A stretch of 64,000 bases of DNA from Clostridium sp. 'deep sea' (GTDB lineage Bacteria; Bacillota; UBA994; PWPR01): assembly GCF_014931565.1 (NCBI RefSeq), contig NZ_CP063353.1, forward strand, positions 682,001 to 746,000, read 5' to 3'. How positions within the stretch are numbered: position 1 is the first letter of the stretch; each line of letters begins with the position of its first letter. Below are positions 29,660-52,869 of this stretch, piece after piece. The notes under the pieces are model-generated. The model was not told the origin of the DNA. It saw only the letters and a list, made by a program, of their open reading frames with translations, and did no database searches. A program made the position numbers and the translations under genes.

Positions 29660-29677
29660 ATAATTTCCCCATCCTTT

Positions 29678-30511: not shown

Positions 30512-30793
30512 TCATTTTTTGTATTTAACTATAGGAGTGACATATGTTCCAATAAGCAAAATTATTATAAAGCTTATACCAAATAACATAATTTTTATAA
30601 GAATATTCATGTTGCTTAAAAATATACCTAAACCTACCAATCCATCAATAATTACTTGTATCATACCCAAACTTGATTCTATTAGTTCACTATTACAATT
30701 TCTACATGTTATTGTTGTTTTAACTTTGTAATCAGTCTTAAACTTATCACTAAATGATATAGTGTTCTTACCACATACAGGGCATTTAAACAT
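30512..30793 (-). CDS. Zinc-ribbon plus two-helix membrane protein, probable immunity protein A'
   Basis: This 93-aa protein has an N-terminal zinc ribbon (FKCPVCGK ... CRNCNSE, two CxxC pairs) and two transmembrane helices, ending TPIVKYKK. It is a paralogue of the protein at 37804-38094. Each of the two follows an Rhs tail whose ends are also paralogous, so toxin and partner were duplicated together. The start looks damaged. GAGGAGG is present, but where the paralogue has its ATG this copy reads ATA, and the first available ATG (30793) lies about 16 bases from the ribosome site. Expression may be weak. Confidence 0.65.
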   Translation of the reverse strand: MFKCPVCGKNTISFSDKFKTDYKVKTTITCRNCNSELIESSLGMIQVIIDGLVGLGIFLSNMNILIKIMLFGISFIIILLIGTYVTPIVKYKK

Positions 30794-30814: not shown

Positions 30815-32897
30815 CTAATTTTTATTATTAAAATAATACTTTTCACCCGTAGCTAACGTAATATCAGGTATAGGAACATCTTGACCTCTACTTATAGGAT
30901 TAGGTGGTATACCTAAACTATAAACTGATATATCTGTCTTACTAAATAACTTTCCTGTAGGATCAAATCTATATCTTTGTGTATCATATATACCGTCTTT
31001 TTCTATGGTTATAGCCATATCTTCATAATCGACTAACTCTTTAGATCTACTAATAGATTCATAAGTACTTTTAATGAACCCTAATCTTGAAAATTTTCTA
31101 GTAAAAACCTTTGTAAAATTTTTGTCTTTAAATTTAATCTGAGATAAACCCAAGAGCGCACCATCTATTGCATTAGATACTGAAAAATCAGTATTTGGTT
31201 CAGCTAAATCATCTTTCACCCCAACTGACAACATATAGCCCAAGATATTATATGGAGGGGGAGCTGAACTAAATATTGTAATAAATGCTCCAACCAATGC
31301 CATACCCGTAGATGGCTTTATATTTTTACTAATAGATATTTTAGACTCTATCTTCTTATTATGGTAAGTATACGTACTTACACAATTACCATCATCATCA
31401 CTGAAATCATATTTACCTTTGTATTCTTCTTTCTGCCTTATTGTATCAATAGCTCGTAATCTAGCATATGCCTTATCTGTATCTTTATTTTTTATATTTG
31501 TAAGATAACTCTGTTTATGCTAATACAGACATATGGTCTTCCTTTGTTAATACCGTTTGATCCTTGTACTTCAGGATTAGCTATATTCTTAAATAAGGTT
31601 TCAGGAGACTCTCCTGTTTTATTATGATGTTCAATAACCTTTTTCTGGAACTCTTTTGAGTATTCATTTCCTACATTGTACTTATCTAATATCTCCTTAT
31701 CACTAAGAACAGATTTACTTTGTTTACTACCACCTTTTTTAGGTACATAAACTGTATCATCTTTTTTATTATAGTGAACTTCAGCTCCAGCATTTTGGGT
31801 AGTCTCACGAATTCTTACTTGTACTCTTCCATCTGTAGTTCTAAAGAATTCTGTTCCATCGTCTGCTTTTGCAGTACCACCATTTTTAACTTTATTTAGA
31901 TCATAAGTAACTGTTTTTGTGCCAATTCTTGTTGTAACAGTATTGGTCTTGCCATCGTAGTCAACTTTTCCACCTAGACCTTCAATTACATCTCGTAAAT
32001 TACCTGTAGTACTTTTTCCAGTATACTTAGCATTCCCTACTTCTCTTTCACCTACTGTTATAGCTAAATGCCTACTAGGGTCAATATAGTTAATTGGGTC
32101 ATTTTCACAATAGGTATATAAGTTAAGGCTTAATGGATTAACATCCTCACCCCAATAGCTATCTTCACTTATGAATCTACCTATATAAGGGTTGTAGTAT
32201 CTAGCACGTAAGTAATAAAGTCCTGTTTCATAATCATAAAACTCACCTGAGTATTTTATGTTATTTGTTTAGGTTTCAATGGTTAAAGTTAAGTTACCAA
32301 ATATGTCATAATTATATTGGTTAATAACTTGTCCATCTTTACTTACAGTTTGTACTACATCACCATGACCGTTGTATAGGAAATAGGTAATATTTGTGCT
32401 GTTTTTGCGTGAAATATAGTTAATTCCTCTTACATAACTTGTACTCTTATTACCGTTTTCATCGGTTTCTAGTATGACATGCTGACGATCATAGTAGTAG
32501 TTGGTTGTTTTTTTAATGTTTAGTTTACTTAGACTACTACTTGTTTTTTGAGTACGTAATCCATCACCGTTATATGTGTACGTTACTATATGGCGGTCGC
32601 CCTTGGCAATTCGCTCTACTTTTTTGAGTCTGTTAAAACCATCAAAAGTGTTTTTGGTTCTTTCAATAAGATTATCTATTTCAGTTGACTCTTTGTTTAC
32701 TACACTACCCTTGGTCATTTGTCTTAAAACAATTGTATGGGGGTGTTCGTAGCTGGTGTATTGGCTTAGCTGATTACCGTTATTGTCATAGAGGTAGTTT
32801 ACTGTTTTACGTAATACCTCGTTACCCTTTTATGAATAGCCGTAGTTGCTTGTTTTTTTAGGTATTTAACTTCTTCTTCGGTACTTTTAATTATATT
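30815..32897 (-). pseudogene. Decayed Rhs core and C-terminal tail (A'), homologous to the end of the main Rhs gene
   Basis: From about 32897 the DNA matches the last YD repeats, core, stalk domain and tail of the main Rhs gene, but with clear lesions. These are a roughly 50-bp deletion near 32830, a nonsense codon at 32269-32271 (CTA in place of CTC/TTC-type sequence on the plus strand), DPSGH changed to DPSRH near 32070, and a two-base deletion near 31515. There is no start or signal peptide. The last 160 or so residues (30815-31303) have diverged from the main tail in their middle part, while EKDGIYDTQRYRFDPTGKLF and the ending TGEKYYFNNKN are conserved. It is a displaced tail cassette. 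Confidence 0.88.
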
Positions 32898-32919
32898 TTT
32901 AGGTGTAATATTACAATAT

Positions 32920-32953
32920 AAAAGACTAACATTTTAACAATGTTAGCCTTTTG
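32920..32953 (-). terminator. Terminator after the beta-propeller gene
   Basis: AAAGACTAACATT and AATGTTAGCCTTT form a hairpin with one mismatch around a short loop. On the minus strand it ends in a T-rich run, 15 bases after the stop at 32969. Confidence 0.75.
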
Positions 32954-32968
32954 CACAACATAACCTTT

Positions 32969-34162
32969 TTATTCTGGTAACTGAAAAATCTTTATTTCAT
33001 CAGTACCATCAGTTATTATTAGTTTGTCTTGATATATCTGATAGTTTGAAACATCATCACTAGTATATGTTTTATAACGCCATAATTCTTGACCTGTTTC
33101 TGAGTTTATAACATGAATACCACCTCTAAATGTTTTACCAACATAGTAGTTTTTATACCTATTAAAGCTATCTATTAGTCTATTAATAAAAGCTTTCTCC
33201 CATATTAATTCTCCACTATTAATATCAAACTGTCTCAATCTATAATCATCATAGTCATTAGCGATTAAATAGTCATTATCAATAAAATATCCATATCTAT
33301 TTATGGCTTTCGTCCATATTTTTTCACCATTATTCTGGCTTACCCTTGACATACTTTCTCCCCATATTACAGTAAACATTTTGTCATCTACTAAATCTAT
33401 ATCTTGGGCATGTAGATTATAGCTCTTTATTTTCTTACCTGTTTTTGAATTAAGAATATGTGTAGTATAAGTATTATTAAAGTAGACACTATTATTTCCA
33501 AAGCCAATTCCTGGGCTAGTTCTACTAGTTGATTCAACATATTTCCAAGTTAATTTCAACGTTTTTATATCATAGGCATATATGCTATTTCCTTCTCCCC
33601 AGCAATATAATATATCGTTATAGATTTTAGAAACTCTGAAAAAATCTACTTTATTTGATGTTATTTCGTTTTTAGTTAAATCTAAAACTTTAAGATACAT
33701 TTTATATCCTGTCATAACTAATTTGTCTTTATATAAAAATACATTTTGATTAATTAAAGAATCTCTTTCATATTCAAACAAATTATGCTCTAATGTTTTG
33801 AAATATATTTTTACTAATTCATTATCATTTATTACAAAGTATACATACTCATTGTTATTTACTACATTAAAGTTACTGATTTTATTCTGTAACCCTATTG
33901 TCTTTAACGTTTTTTTAGTATTAATATCAATTATGTTTATTTCCTTTGTAGTAGCACAATATAATACACCTTCTTTAGTTATTAGCCACTTTTTATTTAC
34001 ATTTCCATTAACTTTTACATTACTTATCTCATTAAGATTAATTACATTTTTAAAAGTGTCTTGCTTCATGGTACTTGTAACAGCTATTATTACTACTACA
34101 ATAATAGCTGTTAATACTATAAAGCCCCCTATCATCAATTTATTGCGATTCATTTTACTCAT
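32969..34162 (-). CDS. Membrane-anchored PQQ-like beta-propeller protein
   Basis: This 397-aa protein has one N-terminal transmembrane helix (LMIGGFIVLTAIIVVVIIAV at about residues 9-28) followed by about seven blades of PQQ/YVTN type, with repeats such as INSETGQELWRYKTYT, INSGELIWEKAF and SQNNGEKIWTKAI. It should sit on the outer face of the membrane as a binding or scaffold domain. No catalytic function is implied. GAGGTG precedes the ATG at 34162. It lies between Rhs tail cassettes and, unlike them, is intact. Its link to the toxin system is only positional. Confidence 0.75.
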   Translation of the reverse strand: MSKMNRNKLMIGGFIVLTAIIVVVIIAVTSTMKQDTFKNVINLNEISNVKVNGNVNKKWLITKEGVLYCATTKEINIIDINTKKTLKTIGLQNKISNFNVVNNNEYVYFVINDNELVKIYFKTLEHNLFEYERDSLINQNVFLYKDKLVMTGYKMYLKVLDLTKNEITSNKVDFFRVSKIYNDILYCWGEGNSIYAYDIKTLKLTWKYVESTSRTSPGIGFGNNSVYFNNTYTTHILNSKTGKKIKSYNLHAQDIDLVDDKMFTVIWGESMSRVSQNNGEKIWTKAINRYGYFIDNDYLIANDYDDYRLRQFDINSGELIWEKAFINRLIDSFNRYKNYYVGKTFRGGIHVINSETGQELWRYKTYTSDDVSNYQIYQDKLIITDGTDEIKIFQLPE

Positions 34163-34236: not shown

Positions 34237-34338
34237 TCAATAAACTACTACTATCATTTTTAACAATAACGGAATGTAAAACACTATTATAGTTAACATT
34301 AGCCCCAATATTTCTGTGTCTCTCGTATTCTTACCCAT
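34237..34338 (-). CDS. Possible 33-aa single-helix membrane peptide
   Basis: An ATG at 34338 opens a 33-codon frame encoding a charged start (MGKNTRDTEI) and one hydrophobic helix (LMLTIIVFYIPLLL). No good ribosome site is visible. It lies between a truncated immunity fragment and the beta-propeller gene. Small membrane proteins follow Rhs tails elsewhere in this locus, so it may be real, but it may equally be chance in AT-rich DNA. Confidence 0.25.
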   Translation of the reverse strand: MGKNTRDTEILGLMLTIIVFYIPLLLKMIVVVY

Positions 34339-34353
34339 CTTTGTTTCTAAATA

Positions 34354-34448
34354 ATTCTATTATATGGTCTGTTTGCTAACTCATTTTATTTTTCGGTTTA
34401 TATTACTGTTATTTAATAAATATTGAAAGATAAAAAAAGACTAACACC
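34354..34448 (-). repeat. Direct repeat, copy 1 (tail of a small immunity-like gene)
   Basis: About 90 bases here recur at 34695-34788 with only a few differences (TTATATGGTCTGTTTG through GATAAAAAA). The repeat covers the 3' end of the 25-aa fragment gene at 34413-34490 and its downstream DNA. It shows that this cassette was duplicated or misaligned during recombination. Confidence 0.85.
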
Positions 34449-34490
34449 CATAGGTATCATATAGTGAAAAAATTTATCATTGTTTTTCAT
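34413..34490 (-). pseudogene. Truncated small membrane protein, homologue of the 59-aa immunity candidates
   Basis: A strong ribosome site (GGGAGG) precedes an ATG at 34490. The 25-aa product MKNNDKFFHYMIPMGVSLFL ends after SFNIY. It aligns with the start of the 59-aa protein at 35011-35190 (MSNEDKKFFLFIIPASLLGF), so it is a shortened relative. It directly follows the tail fragment ending NNGYYNLN, in the usual toxin-then-immunity order. Confidence 0.6.
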
Positions 34491-34509
34491 TGTTTTCCTC
34501 CCTAATTTA

Positions 34510-34700
34510 AATTGTAGTATCCGTTATTACTAGAATATTTATTACCGAAATTGTCATTATTATGTGTACCTAAAGTTTTAAGGCTTACTACATGAAAAAC
34601 CATTCATCTTTTTTATTATAGTGAACTTCAGCCCCTGCATTTTGAGCAGTCTCACGAATTCTTACTTGTACTCTTCCATCTGTAGTTCTAAAGAATTCTG
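34510..34700 (-). pseudogene. Fossil Rhs fragment: end of the stalk domain and a short unknown tail (C)
   Basis: Bases 34600-34700 match the Rhs stalk domain end (GRVQVRIRETAQNAGAEVHY, NKKD) found in the three other copies. After a break, another frame reads KTLGTHNNDNFGNKYSSNNG and YYNLN, then stops just before the truncated immunity-like gene at 34490. Nearly all of the tail has been deleted. This is the remains of a fourth type of toxin cassette. Confidence 0.7.
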
Positions 34701-34788
34701 TTATATGGTCTGTTTGGTAACTCATTTTATTTTTCGGTTTATACTGCTGTTATTTAATAAATATTGAAAGATAAAAAAGACCAACACA
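34695..34788 (-). repeat. Direct repeat, copy 2
   Basis: This second copy of the repeat described at 34354-34448 is fused directly to the Rhs stalk fragment, in the middle of the codons that normally continue EFFRT in other copies. One base fewer in its A run puts any coding frame out of register. The junction marks a past recombination event. Confidence 0.85.
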
Positions 34789-34809
34789 ATATTTTTATGT
34801 TAGTCTTTT
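34775..34809 (-). terminator. Terminator after the small membrane protein gene at 34815
   Basis: AAAAGACCAACA and TGTTAGTCTTTT pair with one mismatch around an 11-base AT loop. The hairpin lies five bases after the stop codon at 34815. Confidence 0.75.
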
Positions 34810-34814
34810 ACACT

Positions 34815-34994
34815 TTATTTCTTAGAAATTTTCTTATCAATTACATGTGCTATTAATGTTAAAGCTGTAAATCCAATAGCAGCATAATTAATAAAAGAGG
34901 TTGACTGTTCTGGATTTATTTTTCCTGATGAAGATAGGTAAAAATATACCATTATAGTGATTGCAACTACTATGCTTATTATTTTTTTGAACAT
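34815..34994 (-). CDS. 59-aa two-helix membrane protein, candidate immunity protein B2
   Basis: ATG at 34994 with GGAGG nine bases upstream encodes a 59-aa protein with two hydrophobic segments (IISIVVAITIMVYFYL and a second around INYAAIGFTALTLIAHVI) and a basic end (DKKISKK). It follows the 59-aa gene at 35011 by 16 bp, with the ribosome site lying just after that gene's stop, so the two are co-transcribed with the orphan Rhs gene upstream. It matches no family that I know. Position suggests immunity to tail B or stabilisation of its partner. Confidence 0.65.
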   Translation of the reverse strand: MFKKIISIVVAITIMVYFYLSSSGKINPEQSTSFINYAAIGFTALTLIAHVIDKKISKK

Positions 34995-35010: not shown

Positions 35011-35190
35011 TTACCATGGATTTTTTCTTATAATATACTTAAATAATATTATACCTACCACAATAATGTAAGCAATAAATAAAATTTTATCATATGGCTT
35101 ATATAATGAGAAAACTTTATCATCAAGTATAAATCCCAATAAACTGGCAGGTATTATAAATAAAAAGAATTTTTTATCTTCATTACTCAT
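35011..35190 (-). CDS. 59-aa two-helix membrane protein, candidate immunity protein B1
   Basis: ATG at 35190 has AAAGGAG seven bases upstream, and the stop of the orphan Rhs gene (35203) is 12 bases away. The product MSNEDKKFFLFIIPASLLGF continues with DDKVFSLYKPYDK, then a second helix IAYIIVVGIILF and the ending IIRKNPW. A truncated homologue occurs after fossil tail C at 34413-34490. A gene placed directly after an Rhs tail is normally its immunity gene. A membrane location implies that tail B acts at or enters through the membrane (inference). Confidence 0.7.
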   Translation of the reverse strand: MSNEDKKFFLFIIPASLLGFILDDKVFSLYKPYDKILFIAYIIVVGIILFKYIIRKNPW

Positions 35191-35202: not shown

Positions 35203-37731
35203 TTATTCATTATTAATATCACTACCACCATAATGTCTAATATTCTCTTCACCATTTTTCACTAGATTATCAACACTACTTACATGATAGTAAGAATTTT
35301 GCACGCTTGCACTAAACTCAGCTGGGATAAGTCCACCCTTAAAAGCAAAACTATTAGCTATAGGTCCATTTTCTGGATTACGCTTGTCATAAGATCTGCT
35401 AAACTCATAGCTACTAGTACCCGTAGAAAAATAGCCTGTAGTCTTACTAGATATACCATTCAAATCCTCAACATTCTTAGCTTGAGATACAAAGGTTCCT
35501 CCAATACCGCCTCCTAAACTTACAAGTTTACCTGAACTACTTATGGTAACTCCATTGTCATAATGTATACCAACTGCAACAGACTCTCCAATTTTTCTGT
35601 CTCTACCATAAACATCAAGAAAGTCTAGTTCTATATATAGACCAATTCCCGCATCAAAACGATAGTTTCCTAATACAATTGTACCATTTATCTCAATTCC
35701 AACTACTTTGTCTGTAAAATCATATCCCTTTTGCTGATACACAGGGATATTATTATCCCAGTGTTCCATTATAGCCTTTACTGCTGCATCTTTCTCTCTT
35801 GCTTCTTCAGAGAACTCCATATTTTTAATAAACTCTAATGTTGGATCTTTATATAGCCCTGCTTTTTTCATCTCCTCAAGGAGTTGTTTTTCATCAAGTT
35901 TGATTATTATCTTTGAACCTGTATTATTAATATCATTCTTAACAGCTTTATTTGAGTACAGCAAATTACGAGTTGTATTACCCACTTTACCAGCATACTG
36001 ATTATGGTTCCATAATTTGTTTGTATTTTTAAATGCATTTACTGCATACTCTGTAGTTTCATCAAATAATCCATTTTCAGATAATGCATTACCATTATTA
36101 TCTGTATATCCTAACTCATTCAGTCTGCGCTGCATATCCTGAACTGATGCATCGTAAGCTGGTTTTTCTTGCCTTTGTAGTATTCTATTTGTTTCTTTAA
36201 CTACAGCATTGTTAGTTTTTGAATGACTACCCGTATATGATGATGATCCATGACTACTTGAATGTGACGAACTACCTGAACTACTAGTTCTTCTACTACT
36301 ACCACCTTTTTTAGGTACATAAACTGAATCATCTTTTTTATTATAGTGAACTTCAGCCCCAGCATTTTGGGCAGTTTCACGAATTCTTACTTGTACTCTT
36401 CCATCTATAGTTCTAAAGAATTCTGTTCCATCGTCTGCTTTAGCAGTACCACCATTTTTAATCTTATTGAGATCATAAGTAACAGTTTTGCCTTTTATTT
36501 TGGTTGTAACAGTATTTGTTCTTCCATCGTAGTCAACTTTTCCACCTAAACCCTCTATTACATCTCTTAGGTTACCAGTAGATACTCCATTTTCTACTTT
36601 CGCATTTCCTACTTCTCTATCACCAGATTTTACTTTTATATGCCCACTAGGGTCAATATAGTTTATTGGGTCATTTTCACAATAGGTATATAGGTTAAGG
36701 CTTAATGGATTAACATCCTCACCCCAATAGCTATCTTCACTTATGAATCTACCTATATATGGGTTGTAGTATCTAGCACGTAAATAATAAAGTCCTGTTT
36801 CATAATCATAAAACTCACCTGAGTATTTTATGTTATTTGTTTCGGTTTCAATGGTAAGTGTTAAGTTACCAAATATATCGTAATTGTATTGGTTAATAAC
36901 TTGTCCATTTTTACTAACAGTTTGTACTACATCACCATGACCGTTGTATAGGAAATAGGTAATATTTGTGCTGTTTTTGCTTGAAATATAGTTAATTCCT
37001 CTTACATAACTTGTACTTTCATTACCGTTTTCATCGGTTTCTAATATGACATGCTGACGATCATAGTAGTAGTTGGTTGTTTTTTTAATGTTTAGTTTAC
37101 TTAGGCTACTACTTGTTTTTTGGGTACGTAATCCATCACCGTTATATGTGTACGTTACTATATGGCGGTCGCCATTGGCAATTCGCTCTACTTTTTTGAG
37201 TCTGTTAAAACCATCAAAAGTGTTTTTGGTTCTTTCAATAAGTTTATCTATTTCAGTTGACTCTTTGTTTACTACACTACCTTTGGTCATTTGTCTTAAA
37301 ACAATTGTATGGGGGTGTTCGTAGCTAGTGTATTGGCTTAGCTGATTACCGTTATTGTCATAGAGGTAGTTTACTGTTTTACGTAATAACTCGTTACCCT
37401 CTTCATCATACATTTTTTCTACATGTTGTAGTAGTAGGTTTGCTGATGAATAGCTGTAGTTGCTTGTTTTTTTAAGGTATTTAACTTCTTCTTCGGTACT
37501 TTTAATTATATATTTAGTTGGTTGCTGTGTTTTATATATTTGCTCACTATTTTGTCTGTTACCTGCTTTATCGTAGCCATAGCTTGTTGTATAGCCTGGA
37601 GCCTCTACTTGTTTTATTCTGCCTGCGGCATCGTAGCTATAAGTAGTTGTACCATAACTGTCTGTTTTGTTTTTTTGTCTGCCTGCTTGGTCATAGGTAT
37701 AGTTATAGCAACTAAAAGAAAAGACCTGCAC
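35203..37731 (-). CDS. Orphan Rhs core with stalk, peptidoglycan-binding domain and unknown toxin tail (B)
   Basis: This open frame of 842 codons begins at a GTG (37731) with no ribosome site and no signal peptide, in the middle of a YD repeat (NYTYDQAGRQ), so it is a displaced 3' end of an Rhs gene. Residues 1-360 cover the last YD repeats and the Rhs core (LYYLRARYYNPYIGRFISED, ending YIDPSGH). Residues 365-480 form the stalk domain with GNLRDVIEGLGGKVDYDG. A Ser-rich linker follows at about 480-515, then a PG_binding_1 domain (MQRRLNELGYTDNNGN at about 535). The last 240 residues are a tail I do not recognise, with KVVGIEINGTIVLGNYRFDA and a Gly/Ser-rich beta segment. Two small membrane protein genes follow. 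Confidence 0.85.
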   Translation of the reverse strand: MQVFSFSCYNYTYDQAGRQKNKTDSYGTTTYSYDAAGRIKQVEAPGYTTSYGYDKAGNRQNSEQIYKTQQPTKYIIKSTEEEVKYLKKTSNYSYSSANLLLQHVEKMYDEEGNELLRKTVNYLYDNNGNQLSQYTSYEHPHTIVLRQMTKGSVVNKESTEIDKLIERTKNTFDGFNRLKKVERIANGDRHIVTYTYNGDGLRTQKTSSSLSKLNIKKTTNYYYDRQHVILETDENGNESTSYVRGINYISSKNSTNITYFLYNGHGDVVQTVSKNGQVINQYNYDIFGNLTLTIETETNNIKYSGEFYDYETGLYYLRARYYNPYIGRFISEDSYWGEDVNPLSLNLYTYCENDPINYIDPSGHIKVKSGDREVGNAKVENGVSTGNLRDVIEGLGGKVDYDGRTNTVTTKIKGKTVTYDLNKIKNGGTAKADDGTEFFRTIDGRVQVRIRETAQNAGAEVHYNKKDDSVYVPKKGGSSRRTSSSGSSSHSSSHGSSSYTGSHSKTNNAVVKETNRILQRQEKPAYDASVQDMQRRLNELGYTDNNGNALSENGLFDETTEYAVNAFKNTNKLWNHNQYAGKVGNTTRNLLYSNKAVKNDINNTGSKIIIKLDEKQLLEEMKKAGLYKDPTLEFIKNMEFSEEAREKDAAVKAIMEHWDNNIPVYQQKGYDFTDKVVGIEINGTIVLGNYRFDAGIGLYIELDFLDVYGRDRKIGESVAVGIHYDNGVTISSSGKLVSLGGGIGGTFVSQAKNVEDLNGISSKTTGYFSTGTSSYEFSRSYDKRNPENGPIANSFAFKGGLIPAEFSASVQNSYYHVSSVDNLVKNGEENIRHYGGSDINNE
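36650..37712 (-). repeat. Long direct repeat of Rhs core DNA, copy in the orphan gene
   Basis: This stretch is nearly identical to 39365-40425 in the main Rhs gene at a constant offset of about 2714 bases. Several hundred bases in a row match without change, although the flanking stalk and tail regions differ. Such identity implies recent duplication or gene conversion and gives a substrate for homologous recombination that would exchange the tails. Confidence 0.9.
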
Positions 37732-37803
37732 AAATTTGCCATGCTGGTCTCTACTATTTCTTAATATTTGTAATAATATTGTTTCTTGTATAACTACAAG
37801 TCC

Positions 37804-38094
37804 TTATTTTCTATATTTAATTAAAGGTACATAATACTTATTAATATATATTGCTGGTAAAAATGTTATTACATAAAGTATTATAGCTATATATAGCTTC
37901 ATACCTAAAAAAAACACTGTCATACATAACAAGCAATGTATAAGAATTCCGACTCCTGCCAAATTAGATTCTATTAATTCACTACCACATTTCTTACAAA
38001 TGATAGTAGTTCTCAGTCTATAGTTAGTTTTGAACTTATCTTTAAATGTAATAGTACTATTCTCACATACAGGGCATTTAAACAATTTTTTCAT
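37804..38094 (-). CDS. Zinc-ribbon plus two-helix membrane protein, candidate immunity protein A
   Basis: This 96-aa protein has the zinc ribbon FKCPVCENSTITFKDKF with a second pair CKKCGSE, then two hydrophobic helices (LIHCLLCMTVFFLGM and AIILYVITFLPAIYI), ending VPLIKYRK. GAGGAG lies six bases upstream of the ATG at 38094. The stop of the main Rhs gene is only 11 bases upstream, so the two are translated from one message. Its paralogue at 30512 follows the paralogous tail A'. It should protect the producing cell from tail A. I know no named immunity family with this architecture. Confidence 0.75.
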   Translation of the reverse strand: MKKLFKCPVCENSTITFKDKFKTNYRLRTTIICKKCGSELIESNLAGVGILIHCLLCMTVFFLGMKLYIAIILYVITFLPAIYINKYYVPLIKYRK

Positions 38095-38105
38095 ATAAAT
38101 CTCCT

Positions 38106-41100
38106 CTACTTATTGTTAAAATAAATATTTTCTCCAGTAGCTAACATAATATTTGGATTAATAAGATCACTTCCAGCACTAATGGGTGCTGGTGGTATTC
38201 CATAGTCATAAACAGAAATATCTGTTTTACTAAATAATTTGCCTAAAGGATCAAATCTGAATCTTTGAGTATCGTATATCCCATCTTTTTCTATGCTTAT
38301 AGACATATCTTTAAATCCATTCCATTTTTTTACATCTCCTACAGTATCATAAATACTTTTAATTATCCCTAATCCAGTAAAAAAGTGAGGAGTATATTCA
38401 GATATATTGTCTTTTATGAATTTAATATGTGACAACCCTAACAATGCTCCATCAACTGCATTTGATGCTGTAAAATCAATATTAGGTTCTGATAATTCGT
38501 CTCTAGCTCCAACAGATAATAAATATGCCAATATATTATATAATGGAGCTACGCTTAATGCTGTAAGACCTGAACCAATTAATGCAGCACTTTTAGATGG
38601 ATCAAGATCAAAACTAATAGATATTTTAGACTCTATCTTCTTATTATGGTAAGTATAAGTACTTATACAATTACCATCATCATCACTGAAATCATATTTA
38701 CCTTTGTATTCTTCTTTCTGCCTTATTGTATCAATAGCTCGTAAACTAGCATATGCCTTATCTGTATCTTTATTTTTTATATTTGTAAGATAACTCTGTT
38801 TAAGTGCTAATACAGACATATGGTCTTCCTTTGTTAATACCGTTTGATCTTGTACTTCAGGATTAGCTATATTCTTAAATAAGGTTTCAGGAGACTCGCC
38901 TGTTTTATTATGATGTTCAATAACCTTTTTCTGGAACTCTTTTGAGTATTCATTTCCTACATTGTACTTATCTAGTATCTCCTTATCACTAAAAACAGGT
39001 TTACTTGGTTTACTACCACCTTTTTTAGGTACATAAACTGAATCATCTTTTTTATTATAGTGAACTTCAGCCCCTGCATTTTGGGCAGTTTCACGAATTC
39101 TTACTTGTACTCTTCCATCTGTAGTTCTAAAGAATTCTGTTCCATCGTCTGCTTTGGCAGTGCCACCGTTTTTAACTTTATTTAGATCATAAGTAACTGT
39201 TTTTGTGCCTATTCTTGTTGTAACAGTATTGGTCTTGCCATCGTAGTCAACTTTTCCACCTAGACCTTCAATTACATCTCGTAAATTACCTGTAGTACTT
39301 TTTCCAGTATACTTAGCATTCCCTACTTCTCTTTCACCTACTGTTATAGCTAAATGCCCACTAGGGTCAATATAGTTTATTGGGTCATTCTCACAATAGG
39401 TATATAGATTTAAACTTAGAGGATTTACATCCTCACCCCAATAGCTATCTTCACTTATGAATCTACCTATATATGGGTTGTAGTATCTAGCACGTAAATA
39501 ATAAAGTCCTGTTTCATAATCATAAAACTCACCTGAGTATTTTATGTTATTTGTTTCGGTTTCAATGGTAAGTGTTAAGTTACCAAATATATCGTAATTG
39601 TATTGGTTAATAACTTGTCCATTTTTACTAACAGTTTGTACTACATCACCATGACCGTTGTATAGGAAATAGGTAATATTTGTGCTGTTTTTGCTTGAAA
39701 TATAGTTAATTCCTCTTACATAACTTGTACTTTCATTACCGTTTTCATCGGTTTCTAATATGACATGCTGACGATCATAGTAGTAGTTGGTTGTTTTTTT
39801 AATGTTTAGTTTACTTAGGCTACTACTTGTTTTTTGGGTACGTAATCCATCACCGTTATATGTGTACGTTACTATATGGCGGTCGCCATTGGCAATTCGC
39901 TCTACTTTTTTGAGTCTGTTAAAACCATCAAAAGTGTTTTTGGTTCTTTCAATAAGTTTATCTATTTCAGTTGACTCTTTGTTTACTACACTACCTTTGG
40001 TCATTTGTCTTAAAACAATTGTATGGGGGTGTTCGTAGCTAGTGTATTGGCTTAGCTGATTACCGTTATTGTCATAGAGGTAGTTTACTGTTTTACGTAA
40101 TAACTCGTTACCCTCTTCATCATACATTTTTTCTACATGTTGTAGTAGTAGGTTTGCTGATGAATAGCTGTAGTTGCTTGTTTTTTTAAGGTATTTAACT
40201 TCTTCTTCGGTACTTTTAATTATATATTTAGTTGGTTGCTGTGTTTTATATATTTGCTCACTATTTTGTCTGTTACCTGCTTTATCGTAGCCATAGCTTG
40301 TTGTATAACCTGGGGCTTCTACTTGTTTTATTCTGCCTGCGGTATCGTAGCTATAGGTTGTTGTGCCATAACTGTCTGTTTTTGTTTCTTGTCGGCCTGC
40401 TTGGTCATAGGTATAGTTATAGCTAGATATTGTGTTAAAGCCTTTTTTGTTAGCTAGGCTAGTTATTTGGTTGTTTTTGTTGTAGCTATATTCTTCTTTT
40501 ACTCCTCCAGGGTATTCTATGGATTCTCTGTTACCATTCACATCGTAACTATAGGTTGTTGTTAAACCAGCTCGCTTTACTGTTTTCATCCTGTTGGCTT
40601 TGTCATAGCTGTATTCTGTTACATTGTTCTTTGTATCTGTAACGCTAGCTATATTACCAAGTTTATCGTAGCTGTAGCTTATTTCAAGCTCACCATTTTT
40701 TGTTACTTGTAATAGTTTGTTTATTTCATTGTAGCTATACTCACTAGTACCACTTTCGTCTTGCATTTTGGTTCTGTTGCCTAAGATATCATAGTCATAG
40801 GTTATGCTGTCGTTAGTTTCAGTTACTGTTTTTTCTGTTAGTTTATTACGACTATTGTATTTGTAGTTATGATGATTACCCTTTTTATCTATTTGCTGTG
40901 AGATATTTAGATGTATATCATAACTATATTTTATAGTTTTTTGCTCTGGATTAATTACTGTTAGTAACAAACCAAAGTCTCCATAGTTATAGCTGGTTAT
41001 TTTTCCTTTGCCATTACGTTTAAAAGTTTTGTTATTAACTTTGTTATAGCCATAGCTTGTTGTTACACCTAAAGCATCTATTACTTTTATTAGTCTACCA

Positions 41101-44100
41101 ATATTATCGTACTCATATCTTGTTGACTCTGCTAAACCATTTGTTTGTTTTGTTTTTTCACCATATTGGTTGTACTGCATTGTTATGGTATTGCCTTCGG
41201 CATCGGTTATTGCTGTTACTTGGTTAGCTAGGTTGTATTGGTAGCTAATAGTATTGCCTTTAGCATCTGTAATGGTTTTTATTCTACCCTTTTTATCGTA
41301 ACTATTTTGTTTAATTACTTTGTTATAAGGGTCGATTGTTTTTGTTACTCTATTTAGCTCATCATAGTCATACTGCATACTATTGCCTAGGTTGTTGGTT
41401 TCTTTTATTTTGTTACCTGCTAGGTCATAGTCATATGTTAAGCTACTGCCCCGTGGGTCAGTTATTTTTTTAACTCGATTTAGTTCATCATAACTATATG
41501 TTGCTATATTACCTTTAGGGTCTTTTTCTTTTATTTTATTGCCATTTTCATCGTAGTAATATTCTATAGTGGCCTGTTCACCATTGTAAAACATTACTAC
41601 TTTTTTAGGTCTATTGGCTTTATCATAAGAATATGCTGTGGTATATTCTTTTCTTCTAATATCTTCTTTTGAGTATAGCTGCCCCTTGGGTGCTACTTCT
41701 TTTGTTTTGTTGCCTAAGATGTCATATTCATAGCTTGTTTTTAGCTGAACTTTTGCTGGATACTCATTATCTGTTAAAGAACTTATATTATTCTCACTTT
41801 TTATAGCTATTTTATCTACTAGTTTTATATTAGATATAAGTCTGTTTGAGCTATCATAAACAAATTTTTCAATGTTGTATTGACCTTCTTCACGTAGGCT
41901 TATTGTTTTTATGATATTGCTGTTTTTATCATAGCTATAGTTGATATTTGCTCCACTATTATAGGTTACTGATTCTAGTTTATTGTTATCTAAGTAAGCA
42001 TAATAGGTTTCACGTTTATTGTTTATGTTTTTAGTACCAGTTAGAGTTTTTTTGGTTACTCTACTAAGGTTATCGTAGCTGTATTTTTCTAAGCTATATA
42101 ATGTACTGCCTTGTTTTTCGATTGGTATTTTCTTTTCCACTACTCGGTTTAAGGCATCATAGCTAATATAGGTTTTCGCCCCTGCTTCATCTGTTAGTAC
42201 TACTTGGTTACCTATCAAGTCACTTTTTATTGTTTTACTGTCACCTAAGGGATTTGTAACTTTTTTTATTTTACCAAGTTTATTATACTCAAATAAAGTA
42301 GCATTACCTCTTTGGTCAGTTTGAGTTATTATACGGCCTTTTTTATCGTATACGTATAAGACCTGTGCGCCATCGACATAGGTTACTCGTGATACGGTTT
42401 TATCTGGATTATACTCAAATCTAGTAATATTTCCTTTTTGGTCAGTTTGTTTAGTAATATTTCCTAAAACATCATAGCTATAGTGTTTACTATTACCAAA
42501 TACATCGCTTTCTTTAACTACCCTACCTAAGGCATCATATTCATACACTGTTCCTTCGTTGGCCTCTAATCTTAAACCATCGATTGTTTTTTGCACATTA
42601 CCATTTGGGCTATATTCTATTTTTTGCAGTATTTCACCCTCGGGGTTTATTACCTGCGTTTTGCGATTCATTATGTCATAGCTATAGGTTAGCCCTTTTA
42701 GTTCATGTATTTCTGCTTCGTTATCTTTAGCTGCATTATATTGGTTTGGTGCTATTTCTTTGATAATATTACCTAAAGTATCATAAACATATCTTGTTAT
42801 TACATGGTCACCTTTGCCAAAAGGCTGTTTGGTACGAATAAGTCTATTTAAATTATCGTACTCAAAGAAAGTAGAAATGTTTTGGGCATTTCGCTCTTCG
42901 ATTATATTGCCATTTAAGTCATATTTATAGCTTGTTATGTTCTTTAAGGCATCTGTTTTGGCTACTAAACGATTATCTAGGTCGTAGCTATAACTTTGTT
43001 TATTTCCATTAGCATCTATAGTTGTTTTTACTGATCCGGTGCTATAATAGCTATATTTTGTTGTTGCTTTTATTAATGCTGGGTAGTCGTTATCAAACTC
43101 GGAATTAGCTAATAGCTTAGACTCTATATCGCAAGTATTTAGCAACACGCTACTTTCAATTAAGTTACCCACTACATCATAGCTATATTTTTCTATGTCA
43201 TAATCTGTGTTATTTACTTTTACTTTTTTAATGTTTACATTACCAGCAGCATCATAACCTATTATGGTTTGTTTATCATTAGGCCCTTCAGTAGCTACTA
43301 ATTGATTGTTTTCGTTATAAGTATAGCTTACTTTATCACCCATGCTTTTCTCTACACGACTGCTTTTAGTTTTATTTTCAGTTACTTCAAAGGTTTCAGT
43401 TGTTAACATATTACCTAACTCGTTATAGCTGAATTTAGTTAGTTTATATTGTATATAGGTATTGTCTTCAGCAATGTATTCTAGGCTCTCTATAAGGTTA
43501 GAGGCTTTATCATATTTAAAATATTTAGAGTTTCCTTCTCTATCTATGCTTTCTAGTAAGTTACCTTTATTATCATAAATAAAGTTTTCCTCTAATCCAT
43601 CTGGGTGAATAATTTTATAGGGTTTACCAAATAGGTTTTTATAGGTTTTTATTTTTCGGTTAGCCCTATCTGTTTCTGCTATATAAAACATTCCTAATAA
43701 GTCATAAACATAACTAATGCTTTTATGGTCTGGAAATGTTTTTTGTTTTACTTGATTATTCATGTAGTATGAATACTCAGTTACATTGCCATTGCCATCT
43801 ATTTCTTTAATAACATTGTCATTGGCATCGTACTCATATTTTTTGGTGAAAAAGCCATTATAACCATTGTCTTTAACTGTTTGTGCTGAAATATAAGTAA
43901 TGGGTCTGTCATGTACATCATACTCATAGTAATTACCTACTGAGTTTTGAACAGCTAAAGAGTTGTATCCCTCTCCAGATCCTTCTTTAATAATATTGCC
44001 TCTAGCATCGTAAGCTTTAAAAGTTAGTACCTTTGTTTGATTATTGCTAAAGGTTTCTGTTCTTATTAATCTGTTAAGACTATCATATACATAAATAAGT

Positions 44101-47100
44101 CCTGGAGCTGTATTTTTATTTTGCTGCGCATATCTGGCATCAATTTGTTTTATAAGATTGTTATTACAATCATACAAATAGCCTGTGTTATTGTTTAAGG
44201 CATCTGTTTTTGTAACTATATTGCCCAAACCATCGTAGCTATAGCTAGTTTTATGTTCTTTGCCATTAACAAATACGCTTTCTGATTTTAGGTTTCCTAC
44301 TTGGTCATAAGTATATTTAGTTTTTTTGTTTAAGCTTTCATTAATGGTCTCTAACTTGTTTAACACTCTGTTGCGGTAATCATAACTAAAGCTTGACGTT
44401 TGGTTATCTTCTCCATTGTATTCAATTTTAGAGAGCATATTACCTTCTTCATCATAACTATACTTTACTAATGTGCGACCTTGCTCACTAATAGTACTAT
44501 CGTCTTGTTTTGCTTGATAGCTAGTACTGTTTTCTATTACCCTGTTTGCATAATCATAAACTGAGTTTTCTTTAATATAGCTCTTTTCATCGGCTGTTAT
44601 ATAGGTTATCTTCTCTATTAAATTACCTACTTTATCATATTTGTAATTTATATGTGCTTGTCGCTCTTCATCTACTTTTTGGTATTGATCAGTTATGTTA
44701 TTCATTTTATCGTAAACAAAAGTTATATCTGTTGTTATAGTATTGATATCATTTTTCACTTCACCTTTTAAGTGTTTAAGGGTGTTGTCATTATTATCAT
44801 AGCTATATTTATTGTATATATAGTTACTTTCGCCCTTTTTAAATACCCTGCTTTCTATTAATCTTCCTAAAGTGTCATAGATATTTTTGGTTATTTTATC
44901 TGCGGGTTCTATAATTTCAGTTACATTGTTTAGGCTATCATAGTTATATTGTACTCTGTTATTTAAGGGGTCACTAACTGCCTTTAGTCTCCCCAAATCA
45001 TCATACTCTTTTTTATGAGCATTACCCTTGGGGTCTACTGAAGTTAGTTGTTTTCCTGTGTAGTCATAACTAAAAATGTTATTATGAAAATTTATTTTAT
45101 CTTGGGTGACACTATACTTTATTAGTCTGTTAGCTATATCATAGTGCATTTGTTTTTTATAACCTTTATCGTCTGTTAAAGTTAATAAAAGCTTTGTATT
45201 TGAGCCTGGGTTTATGGTATAACTTAAACTCACACTCTCTTTTGGCACAGATCCATTCTCTTTATCATAGAATGATTTTTTTACAAGCCTATAGGCACTA
45301 TCATATGTAAAAGCAACACTATTTTTATTGCTATCTGTTTCTTTAATTTTATTGCCTTTGGCATCGTATTCTATTGTATTGGTAACAATCCAATTATTGT
45401 TTTTATTAATGCTATATTTAACTCTACAACCCAAGGTATCATATTCTGCTAAAGCTTTAACACCTTTTTCATTGATTACTTCAATTTTTCTATTTTCAGT
45501 TTTATTATCTATATAATTATATTGTAATTGTGTGTTATTTGTTTGTTTTGTTTTAATAAGCCTTTCTACATCATCATATTCATAAGCTGTATAGTTACCA
45601 TTGCCATCTATCTCTTTAATTAGGTTTCCTGTTTTAAAGTTATAGGCAAAGTTTTTCTCTATTTCAGCGCCATTAACAGTGGCAATTTCTTTTGTTAAAT
45701 AAGCTCCTTTATGGTCTACACCATTTATGTCTGTTGAGTAAACATATTTTTTGATACTATTTTCAGTTGTGTTTTTAACAGTGCTATTTACTAAATTACC
45801 GTAAGTATCATACTGGTACTCAGTGACTATATTTTTATTATTATTTGTGTTATTAATTTGTTTTTTAGATATTATATTACCGTTTGAATCAATGTTAAAA
45901 ACTGTTTGGCAAATACTATTTTCGTTTTGATTAAATGTTTTTAATTTTAATACATGATATTTTTTATAGTCATAAGCGTAAGTAATTGTATGTTTATCAT
46001 CTACTGGATAACCCTGCTCATCTCTATCTGCTAATGGACCTGTGTAGTTAAGTAAGTTACCATAAGTATCGTATCTATAATTCTCTACTTTATTTGCTGG
46101 CTCACCAGTTATAACGCCATTTTTTTTGTTGTAAATGGTATTTTGCTTTTTCTTAACCAGCTTCATTTCATCATACTCAGAGGTGGCAACTTGTTTGTGA
46201 TTGTCTCCCTCTTTTACAGAGTTTATTAGCTGATGAAGCCCATCATAAGTATAGGTATTTGTACTACCATTAATATCTTTTACTTCTGTAGAATATTTAA
46301 AGCTATCTTTTAAGTAAGTATAGTCATTATTATTGTATCCTTCTGTACCATAACCGTCTGGCTCATTATTATAGCTATACTGAGTTTTATCTTTAACCTC
46401 TGTAATAAAGCTATTTAAAAAGTCAGTGTTATTATAGTTAAAATCTTTTTTTATTAACTCTTCTGCTCTATATATTTTACGGTACTGCATACTACCCTGA
46501 CTAAGCTCTTTTGTATAAGAGTTGTAGGTATATCTTTTAATTCTGTTCTGTTTACAGTAATCTATTTGTACTAGGTTTTCATACTTATTGTAGGCTGAAT
46601 AGTTATTAGCATTGGTAAAGGTAAAGCCTAAATCGGGTTGCTCATACCAAAAATGGTATTTTGGTTGATTATCCATATCTATTACGCTTTGTAACCTTGT
46701 TCTTATTACATGTTTGCTATTACTCACTAATACCGCTGATTTATGGTAAATAATATGTTTATTATTAGGTAAAGTAATTGTAACTTTAAATTTATTTTTT
46801 AAATTACCAGAGTCAATGTTATTTGGATTTTGATAAGCGGTATAGCTATTGTGCAGATTATAAGTAGGGTTTTCTTTAGCCCCTACCTTATAGTTTGCAT
46901 CATCTGAATACTCAATTTTAATTTTGCGACCAACTGTATCAATTATTTCTGAAATTAGTCTTTTGGTAATTTTAGTATTATCTACTTTGTAAGTTAGGGT
47001 AGTATATTTAAACTGAATTGTATTACCGTATCTATCTACAATACCTAATATTCTCCCATCTTTAGCAAAGTAGGTATTTTTGCCGGCTTTATTTGTCATT

Positions 47101-47732
47101 ACATATTTAGATATACCATCACTCTGTCCATTATTAAAATGGGTAGATTCACGTAAGTATACATCTTTAACTGTTTGAGCAGCTGGCACATAAGTAAGTA
47201 CTGCATCTCTTAAAACTGGATTAAGGCTATATACATCGCCAGCCTCGGTATGTAGATACATGTGTTTATAACCTTGATTCGTTTCTTTTATTTCCATTGT
47301 CGGAAAAGAAAATCTGGTACCTATACCTAAGTTATAACGTTTTTCATAAAAAGAAACTGTTTTAGCATCATACTCAACATAGTCTACCCAAGCACCATTA
47401 ACATACTTAACATTCATGTTTTGAACGTTAGATGTTCCACTTTTATAAATTCTTTTTATTTCTACATCTAAGCCATTTCTACCGGGTAAATAATAGTCTG
47501 TTTGAGTAATAGTTAAATCTCCACTTCTGGGGTTAATGTATTCATCTGTATAGTTGTTTCTTAAAAATACAGGTGATAAACTAGTATTATACAGTTTACT
47601 AGGGCCTACTAAATTGTTTAAATAACCCTCAAGTGACTCTTGTGGTGATTCTGCTTTAGCAAATGTAGTATTTATTGTTAATATCATTAAAAGGACTATT
47701 AGTCCAAATGATATTTTCTTTAATTTAATCAT
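38106..47732 (-). CDS. Giant secreted Rhs/YD-repeat protein with unknown toxin tail (A)
   Basis: From the ATG at 47732 (AGGGGAG six bases upstream) the protein has about 3208 aa. An open-frame start at 47819 lies inside the preceding gene and is rejected. A signal peptide (LKKISFGLIVLLMILTINTT, then FAKA) sends it outside. Residues 30-400 form an N-terminal domain with NPRSGDLTITQTDYYLPGRN. About 410-2730 carry dozens of YD repeats (Y-x-YD-x-x-G-N/R) that should fold into an Rhs shell. The core follows at 2730-2790 (LYYLRARYYNPYIGRFISED, YIDPSGH), then a stalk domain at 2790-2910 and the tail at 2910-3208. The tail has a hydrophobic stretch near SAALIGSGLTALS and ends ATGENIYFNNK. It lacks the PAAR/VgrG links of type VI Rhs proteins. 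Confidence 0.93.
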   Translation of the reverse strand: MIKLKKISFGLIVLLMILTINTTFAKAESPQESLEGYLNNLVGPSKLYNTSLSPVFLRNNYTDEYINPRSGDLTITQTDYYLPGRNGLDVEIKRIYKSGTSNVQNMNVKYVNGAWVDYVEYDAKTVSFYEKRYNLGIGTRFSFPTMEIKETNQGYKHMYLHTEAGDVYSLNPVLRDAVLTYVPAAQTVKDVYLRESTHFNNGQSDGISKYVMTNKAGKNTYFAKDGRILGIVDRYGNTIQFKYTTLTYKVDNTKITKRLISEIIDTVGRKIKIEYSDDANYKVGAKENPTYNLHNSYTAYQNPNNIDSGNLKNKFKVTITLPNNKHIIYHKSAVLVSNSKHVIRTRLQSVIDMDNQPKYHFWYEQPDLGFTFTNANNYSAYNKYENLVQIDYCKQNRIKRYTYNSYTKELSQGSMQYRKIYRAEELIKKDFNYNNTDFLNSFITEVKDKTQYSYNNEPDGYGTEGYNNNDYTYLKDSFKYSTEVKDINGSTNTYTYDGLHQLINSVKEGDNHKQVATSEYDEMKLVKKKQNTIYNKKNGVITGEPANKVENYRYDTYGNLLNYTGPLADRDEQGYPVDDKHTITYAYDYKKYHVLKLKTFNQNENSICQTVFNIDSNGNIISKKQINNTNNNKNIVTEYQYDTYGNLVNSTVKNTTENSIKKYVYSTDINGVDHKGAYLTKEIATVNGAEIEKNFAYNFKTGNLIKEIDGNGNYTAYEYDDVERLIKTKQTNNTQLQYNYIDNKTENRKIEVINEKGVKALAEYDTLGCRVKYSINKNNNWIVTNTIEYDAKGNKIKETDSNKNSVAFTYDSAYRLVKKSFYDKENGSVPKESVSLSYTINPGSNTKLLLTLTDDKGYKKQMHYDIANRLIKYSVTQDKINFHNNIFSYDYTGKQLTSVDPKGNAHKKEYDDLGRLKAVSDPLNNRVQYNYDSLNNVTEIIEPADKITKNIYDTLGRLIESRVFKKGESNYIYNKYSYDNNDNTLKHLKGEVKNDINTITTDITFVYDKMNNITDQYQKVDEERQAHINYKYDKVGNLIEKITYITADEKSYIKENSVYDYANRVIENSTSYQAKQDDSTISEQGRTLVKYSYDEEGNMLSKIEYNGEDNQTSSFSYDYRNRVLNKLETINESLNKKTKYTYDQVGNLKSESVFVNGKEHKTSYSYDGLGNIVTKTDALNNNTGYLYDCNNNLIKQIDARYAQQNKNTAPGLIYVYDSLNRLIRTETFSNNQTKVLTFKAYDARGNIIKEGSGEGYNSLAVQNSVGNYYEYDVHDRPITYISAQTVKDNGYNGFFTKKYEYDANDNVIKEIDGNGNVTEYSYYMNNQVKQKTFPDHKSISYVYDLLGMFYIAETDRANRKIKTYKNLFGKPYKIIHPDGLEENFIYDNKGNLLESIDREGNSKYFKYDKASNLIESLEYIAEDNTYIQYKLTKFSYNELGNMLTTETFEVTENKTKSSRVEKSMGDKVSYTYNENNQLVATEGPNDKQTIIGYDAAGNVNIKKVKVNNTDYDIEKYSYDVVGNLIESSVLLNTCDIESKLLANSEFDNDYPALIKATTKYSYYSTGSVKTTIDANGNKQSYSYDLDNRLVAKTDALKNITSYKYDLNGNIIEERNAQNISTFFEYDNLNRLIRTKQPFGKGDHVITRYVYDTLGNIIKEIAPNQYNAAKDNEAEIHELKGLTYSYDIMNRKTQVINPEGEILQKIEYSPNGNVQKTIDGLRLEANEGTVYEYDALGRVVKESDVFGNSKHYSYDVLGNITKQTDQKGNITRFEYNPDKTVSRVTYVDGAQVLYVYDKKGRIITQTDQRGNATLFEYNKLGKIKKVTNPLGDSKTIKSDLIGNQVVLTDEAGAKTYISYDALNRVVEKKIPIEKQGSTLYSLEKYSYDNLSRVTKKTLTGTKNINNKRETYYAYLDNNKLESVTYNSGANINYSYDKNSNIIKTISLREEGQYNIEKFVYDSSNRLISNIKLVDKIAIKSENNISSLTDNEYPAKVQLKTSYEYDILGNKTKEVAPKGQLYSKEDIRRKEYTTAYSYDKANRPKKVVMFYNGEQATIEYYYDENGNKIKEKDPKGNIATYSYDELNRVKKITDPRGSSLTYDYDLAGNKIKETNNLGNSMQYDYDELNRVTKTIDPYNKVIKQNSYDKKGRIKTITDAKGNTISYQYNLANQVTAITDAEGNTITMQYNQYGEKTKQTNGLAESTRYEYDNIGRLIKVIDALGVTTSYGYNKVNNKTFKRNGKGKITSYNYGDFGLLLTVINPEQKTIKYSYDIHLNISQQIDKKGNHHNYKYNSRNKLTEKTVTETNDSITYDYDILGNRTKMQDESGTSEYSYNEINKLLQVTKNGELEISYSYDKLGNIASVTDTKNNVTEYSYDKANRMKTVKRAGLTTTYSYDVNGNRESIEYPGGVKEEYSYNKNNQITSLANKKGFNTISSYNYTYDQAGRQETKTDSYGTTTYSYDTAGRIKQVEAPGYTTSYGYDKAGNRQNSEQIYKTQQPTKYIIKSTEEEVKYLKKTSNYSYSSANLLLQHVEKMYDEEGNELLRKTVNYLYDNNGNQLSQYTSYEHPHTIVLRQMTKGSVVNKESTEIDKLIERTKNTFDGFNRLKKVERIANGDRHIVTYTYNGDGLRTQKTSSSLSKLNIKKTTNYYYDRQHVILETDENGNESTSYVRGINYISSKNSTNITYFLYNGHGDVVQTVSKNGQVINQYNYDIFGNLTLTIETETNNIKYSGEFYDYETGLYYLRARYYNPYIGRFISEDSYWGEDVNPLSLNLYTYCENDPINYIDPSGHLAITVGEREVGNAKYTGKSTTGNLRDVIEGLGGKVDYDGKTNTVTTRIGTKTVTYDLNKVKNGGTAKADDGTEFFRTTDGRVQVRIRETAQNAGAEVHYNKKDDSVYVPKKGGSKPSKPVFSDKEILDKYNVGNEYSKEFQKKVIEHHNKTGESPETLFKNIANPEVQDQTVLTKEDHMSVLALKQSYLTNIKNKDTDKAYASLRAIDTIRQKEEYKGKYDFSDDDGNCISTYTYHNKKIESKISISFDLDPSKSAALIGSGLTALSVAPLYNILAYLLSVGARDELSEPNIDFTASNAVDGALLGLSHIKFIKDNISEYTPHFFTGLGIIKSIYDTVGDVKKWNGFKDMSISIEKDGIYDTQRFRFDPLGKLFSKTDISVYDYGIPPAPISAGSDLINPNIMLATGENIYFNNK
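39365..40425 (-). repeat. Long direct repeat of Rhs core DNA, copy in the main gene
   Basis: This is the partner of 36650-37712. A third, more diverged copy lies at about 32080-32880 in the decayed A' cassette. The repeat ends near the start of YD repeats NYTYDQAGRQ upstream and near the DPSGH motif downstream, the classic breakpoints of Rhs tail exchange. Confidence 0.9.
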
Positions 47733-47763
47733 CTTTTTCTCCCCTAATGCTATGTTAATGTAT

Positions 47764-52745: not shown

Positions 52746-52869
52746 TTAATTTCTCCTAATAACTTTACAATGAAAGATAAGAACATCCAGCCTTATTAAC
52801 TATGTTAAGCTTTTAAGGCTGTAGTTCTATTCTTTATCCTCTCTAAATATTATGGAAACTATTATATAT
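52746..52869. other. 124-bp gap between the two giant surface protein genes
   Basis: It contains a weak hairpin (AGCCTTA with TAAGGCT, 52789-52820) without a T run on the minus strand, and the ribosome site AGGAG just before 52745. I see no convincing promoter, so read-through from 61900 is plausible. Confidence 0.4.

What the first reader, a model, noticed from the sequence alone, without database searches (positions are those of the whole stretch)
35203..37731. Orphan Rhs gene without signal peptide or ribosome site, sharing about 1.05 kb of nearly identical core DNA with the main gene
The orphan frame begins within a YD repeat at a GTG with no Shine-Dalgarno. Bases 36650-37712 match 39365-40425 almost exactly, while stalk and tail differ. 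This allows a single crossover that would delete about 2.7 kb, including immunity gene A, and connect tail B to the secreted shell.
Basis: partly seen in the sequence, partly recalled or inferred. Interest (0 to 1): 0.8.

Follow-up and report, generated by a model that had tools for sequence, protein, structure and literature searches.

The report
Silent spare toxin tail, recombination-linked
Behind a large secreted bacterial toxin gene lies a headless spare toxin end that shares 881 identical DNA letters with it, so the two have recombined recently and could swap ends, a known trick of Rhs toxin genes seen here in a little-studied Gram-positive bacterium.

Summary
The orphan frame 37731-35203 (minus strand) has no signal peptide and no Shine-Dalgarno at its GTG, which lies inside a terminator-like hairpin after immunity gene A. 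Its core matches the main gene at a constant 2714-base offset. An 881-base stretch (37593-36713 = 40307-39427) is identical (0 of 172 synonymous sites changed), with homologous flanks at synonymous divergence 0.40 and 0.89. A third, broken copy downstream gives a three-block mosaic: main=orphan in the core, orphan=third at the core's end, main=third in the stalk. This shows homologous exchange among the copies, not one clean duplication. Best reading: a stack of displaced Rhs tail/immunity modules, B being the intact silent one, still able to recombine with the secreted main gene. A crossover in the tract would give an in-frame main/tail B gene and remove 2714 bases including immunity gene A; this switch is inferred, not seen. 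The same architecture and recombination were shown in Salmonella in 2014, tail displacement was described in 2009, and a Gram-positive orphan in 2025. Tandem repeats also occur in 19 of 20 other Rhs loci picked here. New member of a known kind.

The parts
38106..47732 (-). Main Rhs/YD gene with tail A; likely start ATG 47732, signal peptide MIKLKKISFGLIVLLMILTINTTFAKA (judged by eye)
   Evidence: Frame 38106-47819; RHS_repeat E 1.2e-144, Rhs_assc_core; ATG 47732 preceded by GGAG at 6 nt
39427..40307 (-). Main copy of the 881-base identical tract
   Evidence: Pairwise alignment, shuffles, dS 0
36713..37593 (-). Orphan copy of the 881-base identical tract
35203..37731 (-). Orphan B frame: spacer codons, Rhs core fragment (to about 36637), stalk (about 36594-36316), PG-binding domain (about 36150-36013), unique tail B
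37804..38094 (-). Putative immunity gene A (96 aa, weak zinc-ribbon matches, hydrophobic C-terminal half)
   Evidence: AGGAG at 6 nt; position after tail A; zinc-ribbon matches below cut-off
37717..37755 (-). Terminator-like hairpin after immunity A; holds the orphan's GTG
   Evidence: -13.5 kcal/mol, z -2.7; not listed by the simple terminator scan
35011..35190 (-). Putative immunity gene B, first (59 aa, hydrophobic)
   Evidence: Reading; AAGGAG before ATG; role inferred from position
34815..34994 (-). Putative immunity gene B, second (59 aa, hydrophobic)
   Evidence: Reading; GGAGG before ATG; role inferred from position
34775..34809 (-). Terminator-like hairpin closing module B
   Evidence: z -8.4
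34285..34787 (-). Two fragments with stalk sequence, debris of further modules
   Evidence: Self-comparison
32920..32952 (-). Terminator-like hairpin just before the third core
   Evidence: z -4.6
30815..32905 (-). Third copy: broken core, A-type stalk, tail A' (stop and frame shifts)
   Evidence: 85.1% to 37806-40234 with immunity A' included; frames
30512..30793 (-). Putative immunity gene A' (93 aa, open frame)
   Evidence: 42 of 93 residues identical to immunity A; AGGAGGT before ATG

Best explanation
The orphan is a displaced C-terminal module (core fragment, stalk, tail B, putative small membrane immunity proteins) of a Sec-secreted Gram-positive Rhs/YD polymorphic toxin, now silent behind the main gene that carries tail A. 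Homologous recombination through the shared core built the stack and has recently made 881 bases of main and orphan identical. Shown: the module architecture, the mosaic history, the identical tract, and the lack of export signal and of a recognisable start. Inferred: that tail B is a toxin, that the orphan is not expressed, and that a crossover in the tract can switch the secreted shell from tail A to tail B, in frame, with loss of 2714 bases and of immunity gene A.
For: 881-base identical tract with dS 0 between flanks of dS 0.40 and 0.89; run beyond 100,000 shuffles, also at third codon positions alone; three-copy mosaic of 21 main=orphan, 7 orphan=third and 41 main=third consecutive sites, each 0 of 20,000 shuffles; constant 2714 offset and same frame; core fragments that begin after hairpins; no start codon with Shine-Dalgarno in the orphan; a relative with the same core and another tail; tandem repeats in 19 of 20 other picked Rhs stretches; the same event demonstrated in Salmonella (PMC3967940).
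Against: No junction was seen and no second strain exists in the collections searched. Tail B has no recognisable toxin domain and no relative beyond its PG-binding part. The intact orphan frame could also mean that it is expressed. The flank divergences rest on 24 and 12 synonymous sites.
Confidence: 0.72

Rival explanations
1. The orphan is expressed inside the cell from an internal promoter and start as a toxin-antitoxin pair, as reported for Salmonella Rhs orphans, and is kept for that use and not as a spare tail.
For: Frame open over 842 codons while the third copy is broken; putative immunity genes with good ribosome sites; precedent PMC7043789.
Against: None of 13 in-frame ATG/GTG/TTG codons has a Shine-Dalgarno; promoter-like sites at chance level, 101 against 106.9; hairpin just upstream. 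CTG starts, used in Salmonella, were not scanned.
Confidence: 0.15
2. The orphan is only decaying debris of past tail displacement, and the identical tract is a chance by-product of recombination without later use.
For: The third copy, two stalk fragments and a lone WHH piece nearby are broken or partial; two further headless tails lie elsewhere in the genome.
Against: Module B is unbroken over 842 codons, and its tract is identical while its flanks are old, so an exchange came with or after the insertion.
Confidence: 0.25
3. The perfect identity is an assembly or polishing artefact: two copies that differ slightly were collapsed into one consensus over the middle of the repeat.
For: The two copies share no difference at all in 881 bases, and no reads were available.
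Against: The third copy, which differs at 20 of about 640 bases of the tract, was kept apart; sharp diverged flanks are resolved; the genome is one contig. Perfect runs of 242 to 571 bases occur in other genomes.
Confidence: 0.07

Closest known systems
Salmonella Typhimurium LT2 rhs-main / rhs-CT-orphan pair (PMC3967940)
   Same: Main gene followed by its immunity gene and a headless orphan with shared core; orphan lacks translation start and export signals; a crossover would delete the main immunity gene
   Different: There 522 bp at 95% identity and junctions were detected; here 881 bases at 100% within 1413 at 95%, no junction data, Sec-type secreted Gram-positive shell, and a third copy plus debris
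Enterobacterial Rhs C-terminal displacement arrays (PMC2935791)
   Same: Strings of dissociated tails, each with a core fragment of varying length, behind one full gene
   Different: There core regions within an E. coli locus were reported as always identical; here only the middle is identical and the ends are diverged, which shows exchange tract edges
Streptococcus suis WapA-CT1 and orphan CT2 (PMC12704120)
   Same: Gram-positive, Sec-exported, over 3000 aa, with an orphan lacking signal peptide and with incomplete core
   Different: That protein has DNRLRE and LysM parts, which did not appear in the scans here; no core mosaic was reported in the passages seen

Membership tests
Rhs/YD polymorphic toxin locus | YD repeats closed by an Rhs_assc_core domain ending in a DPxG motif, followed by a variable tail | tested here: met
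   RHS_repeat and TIGR03696 above cut-off in main and orphan; core ends in DPSGH; tails A and B differ, and relative L011 has another
Rhs/YD polymorphic toxin locus | Toxin activity of the tail and protection by the next gene | not testable with these tools
   No tail domain match; small genes follow each tail
Gram-positive Sec-secreted (WapA-like) Rhs protein | N-terminal signal peptide | tested here: met
   By eye at ATG 47732 with GGAG; no signal-peptide program was run
Gram-positive Sec-secreted (WapA-like) Rhs protein | Cell-wall binding part such as DNRLRE or LysM, as in S. suis WapA | tested here: not met
   Only RHS_repeat and Cu_amine_oxidN1 matched in the main protein
Orphan Rhs-CT module | Core fragment identical or close to the main gene, then a different tail and immunity gene | tested here: met
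Orphan Rhs-CT module | No translation start and no export signal | tested here: met
   No Shine-Dalgarno before 13 in-frame start codons; no signal peptide seen in the translation
Orphan Rhs-CT module | Recombination with the main gene yields a fusion in the population | not testable with these tools
   No reads or sister strains held
Rhs toxin-antitoxin with internal expression | Internal promoter and translation start before the tail | tested here: inconclusive
   Promoter-like sites not above chance; no SD-preceded ATG/GTG/TTG; CTG not scanned

The most novel reading that the evidence does not exclude
Repeated gene conversion between the main gene and its silent orphans keeps the cores recombination-ready while tails and immunity genes diverge, so the stack is a maintained, switchable arsenal in Gram-positive bacteria, comparable to silent-cassette systems. 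The mosaic here and identical runs beyond chance in 9 of 19 other tandem Rhs pairs do not exclude it.
Probability: 0.25. Interest if true: 0.6.

Novelty: new member of a known kind. Interest (0 to 1): 0.38.

Why it matters
It gives a clear case, outside the enterobacteria, of exchange between a secreted toxin gene and its spare tails: a tract with zero synonymous change between flanks that have long diverged. It would let one test directly whether Gram-positive cells switch toxin tails by recombination, and how they survive loss of the old immunity gene. The module layout (core fragment, stalk, tail, immunity, hairpin) also suggests why orphans are silent.

Tried and rejected
A simple recent duplication of the whole module was rejected: it would leave even identity along the repeat, not a perfect middle with old flanks. 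Purifying selection as the cause of the identity was rejected: synonymous sites are also unchanged, and the third copy differs from the orphan at about 14 of 127 synonymous sites in the same stretch. The direction of exchange could not be told: the outgroup locus L011 matches the orphan at 3 and main at 6 of 11 sites 5' of the tract, and 3 against 3 of 8 sites 3' of it. The fold of tail B was predicted from one sequence and is unusable (pLDDT 34.7), so no fold search was made. Searches for relatives of tail B and tail A found nothing of use in viral contigs, plasmids (tail B only) or 398 phylum genomes. The organism was not identified; a guess (Alkalicella) was looked up and led nowhere.

Full report
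Where it is. The window is part of a single-contig genome of 3.83 Mb, about 30% G+C. The Rhs genes of the window lie on the minus strand. Reading from high to low coordinates: main Rhs gene (47819-38106; likely start 47732), immunity A (38094-37804), hairpin, orphan B (37731-35203), two small hydrophobic genes (35190-35011, 34994-34815), hairpin, stalk fragments (34787-34285), a BamB/PQQ-like gene (34162-32969), hairpin, third copy with tail A' and immunity A' (32905-30512), a WHH nuclease fragment with a DUF6985 neighbour (29917-29153), and a Mutator-type transposase (28321-27032).

The observation. Orphan and main share 1417 alignment columns at 95.1%. Column by column, 881 bases are identical (37593-36713 against 40307-39427). 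The 116 bases before it hold 11 differences, and 8 differences fall at 36712-36676 just after it. Synonymous divergence is 0 over 172 sites in the tract, 0.40 in the 5' flank (24 sites) and 0.89 in the 3' core end (12 sites); the flank values rest on few sites. A run of this length did not occur in 100,000 shuffles of the 30 mismatches in 1108 bases (largest 418), nor with third codon positions alone (293 of 369 in a row, largest 211).

The third copy is the key to the history. In 1092 aligned columns there are 108 variable sites. In the core, 21 consecutive sites have main=orphan against the third. At the core's end, 7 consecutive sites have orphan=third against main. In the stalk the longest run is 41 sites with main=third against the orphan. 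Each run was reached in 0 of 20,000 shuffles. So neighbouring blocks have different histories, and recombination has worked among the copies. Tails A and A' differ much more than their stalks: 97 of 160 residues are identical in the last part of the tail, with synonymous divergence about 1.1; immunity A and A' are identical at 42 of 93. The recombining part is the core and stalk; the payloads stay different.

How it was probably built. Jackson et al. (PMC2935791; passages seen) proposed that a circle carrying a core fragment and a new tail inserts by one crossover, pushing the old tail downstream. By my reasoning that model predicts an orphan with foreign sequence at the 5' end of its core and a main gene with foreign sequence at the 3' end of its core, which fits what is seen. 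It does not by itself give a perfect middle between diverged ends, so a conversion tract at or after the crossover is needed. I cannot separate 'crossover with conversion' from 'later conversion', nor name the donor copy: the outgroup L011 matches the orphan at 3 and main at 6 of 11 sites in one flank, and 3 against 3 of 8 in the other.

Is it silent? The GTG at 37731 is only the first start codon of the mechanical frame. It lies upstream of the Rhs homology in the 3' arm of a hairpin that follows immunity A (-13.5 kcal/mol, z -2.7; the simple terminator scan did not list it). Similar hairpins precede the third core and close module B (z -4.6 and -8.4). None of 13 in-frame start codons has a Shine-Dalgarno, against 31 of 37 window ORFs near their starts; the chance rate inside the main gene is 6 of 47, so none in 13 is only mildly surprising. 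In the two headless tails at the genome's second Rhs locus (L035), 4 of 17 and 6 of 18 start codons do have one, so internal starts are possible there. Promoter-like sites are at chance level (101 against 106.9). That the orphan is silent is an inference.

What a crossover would do. Main and orphan read in the same frame through the tract, at a constant offset of 2714 bases. A crossover there would put tail B on the secreted shell and drop 2714 bases with tail A and immunity A. In Salmonella the authors argued that duplication of the locus comes first, so that main immunity is kept (PMC3967940, passages). Here a diverged immunity A' remains downstream; whether it protects is unknown.

Relatives. 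Among the genome contigs one close relative was found, MAG Clostridia bacterium PL23a_bin.55 (L011; core 64% identical in the best segment), and one distant one in Paenibacillus. L011 has a different tail, by eye lipase-like, and an ankyrin-like neighbour gene (both labels from recall). Of 398 genomes drawn from the phylum, 92 have an Rhs_assc_core match, the window's genome included. From the rows listed I picked 20 stretches, mostly with two or more nearby matches, not at random. 19 of 20 hold a tandem repeat of at least 200 bases and 75% identity. In 9 of these 19 the longest identical run was reached in fewer than 5 of 5000 shuffles. This shuffle does not correct for uneven selection, and some best pairs may lie outside the core. 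The window's own 881 bases are the longest; the next is 571. So the arrangement is common in this phylum and this case is at its extreme end.

Prior work. Salmonella: 522 bp at 95% identity, junctions detected (PMC3967940; abstract and passages). Displacement arrays: PMC2935791 (passages). Internal expression as toxin-antitoxin: PMC7043789 (passages). A Gram-positive orphan in S. suis: PMC12704120 (passages). Recombination among tandem immunity genes in Firmicutes: PMC9484751 (abstract). A search for 'gene conversion' with Rhs, toxin and orphan listed two papers: PMC5361080 on Vibrio cholerae type VI effector arrays, and one on dog and human genes (listing only). I did not find this locus described, which cover open-licence papers only.

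Verdict. Observation confirmed and sharpened; interpretation partly supported; a new member of a known kind.

Noticed in passing
L035:4003-5793 and L035:6863-7822 (genome C1 about 769-773 kb): A second Rhs locus in the same genome holds two headless Rhs tails with neighbouring small genes and no full-length Rhs gene in the stretch read, close to a serine-recombinase-like gene (label by eye).
   Followed up: partly
29153-29917: A WHH nuclease fragment (79 aa) followed by a DUF6985 gene: remains of another toxin module, next to a Mutator-type transposase at 27032-28321.
   Followed up: no
32969-34162: A 397-aa BamB/PQQ-like beta-propeller protein with a hydrophobic N-terminus sits between displaced modules; it may be an immunity protein or unrelated cargo.
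   Followed up: no
34285-34787: Two similar short stretches (81% alike) each carry a piece of the stalk and hairpin-like sequence, debris of modules that lost their cores and tails.
   Followed up: partly
L047 (G025:C34:104500-119000): Another genome of the phylum shows the same signature: a 571-base identical run inside a 2907-column Rhs repeat that is otherwise 88% identical.
   Followed up: partly
49437-61857: Two very large fibronectin-III proteins (one with VWA, one with Big_2 and GLUG) lie just upstream of the Rhs locus, perhaps surface proteins.
   Followed up: no
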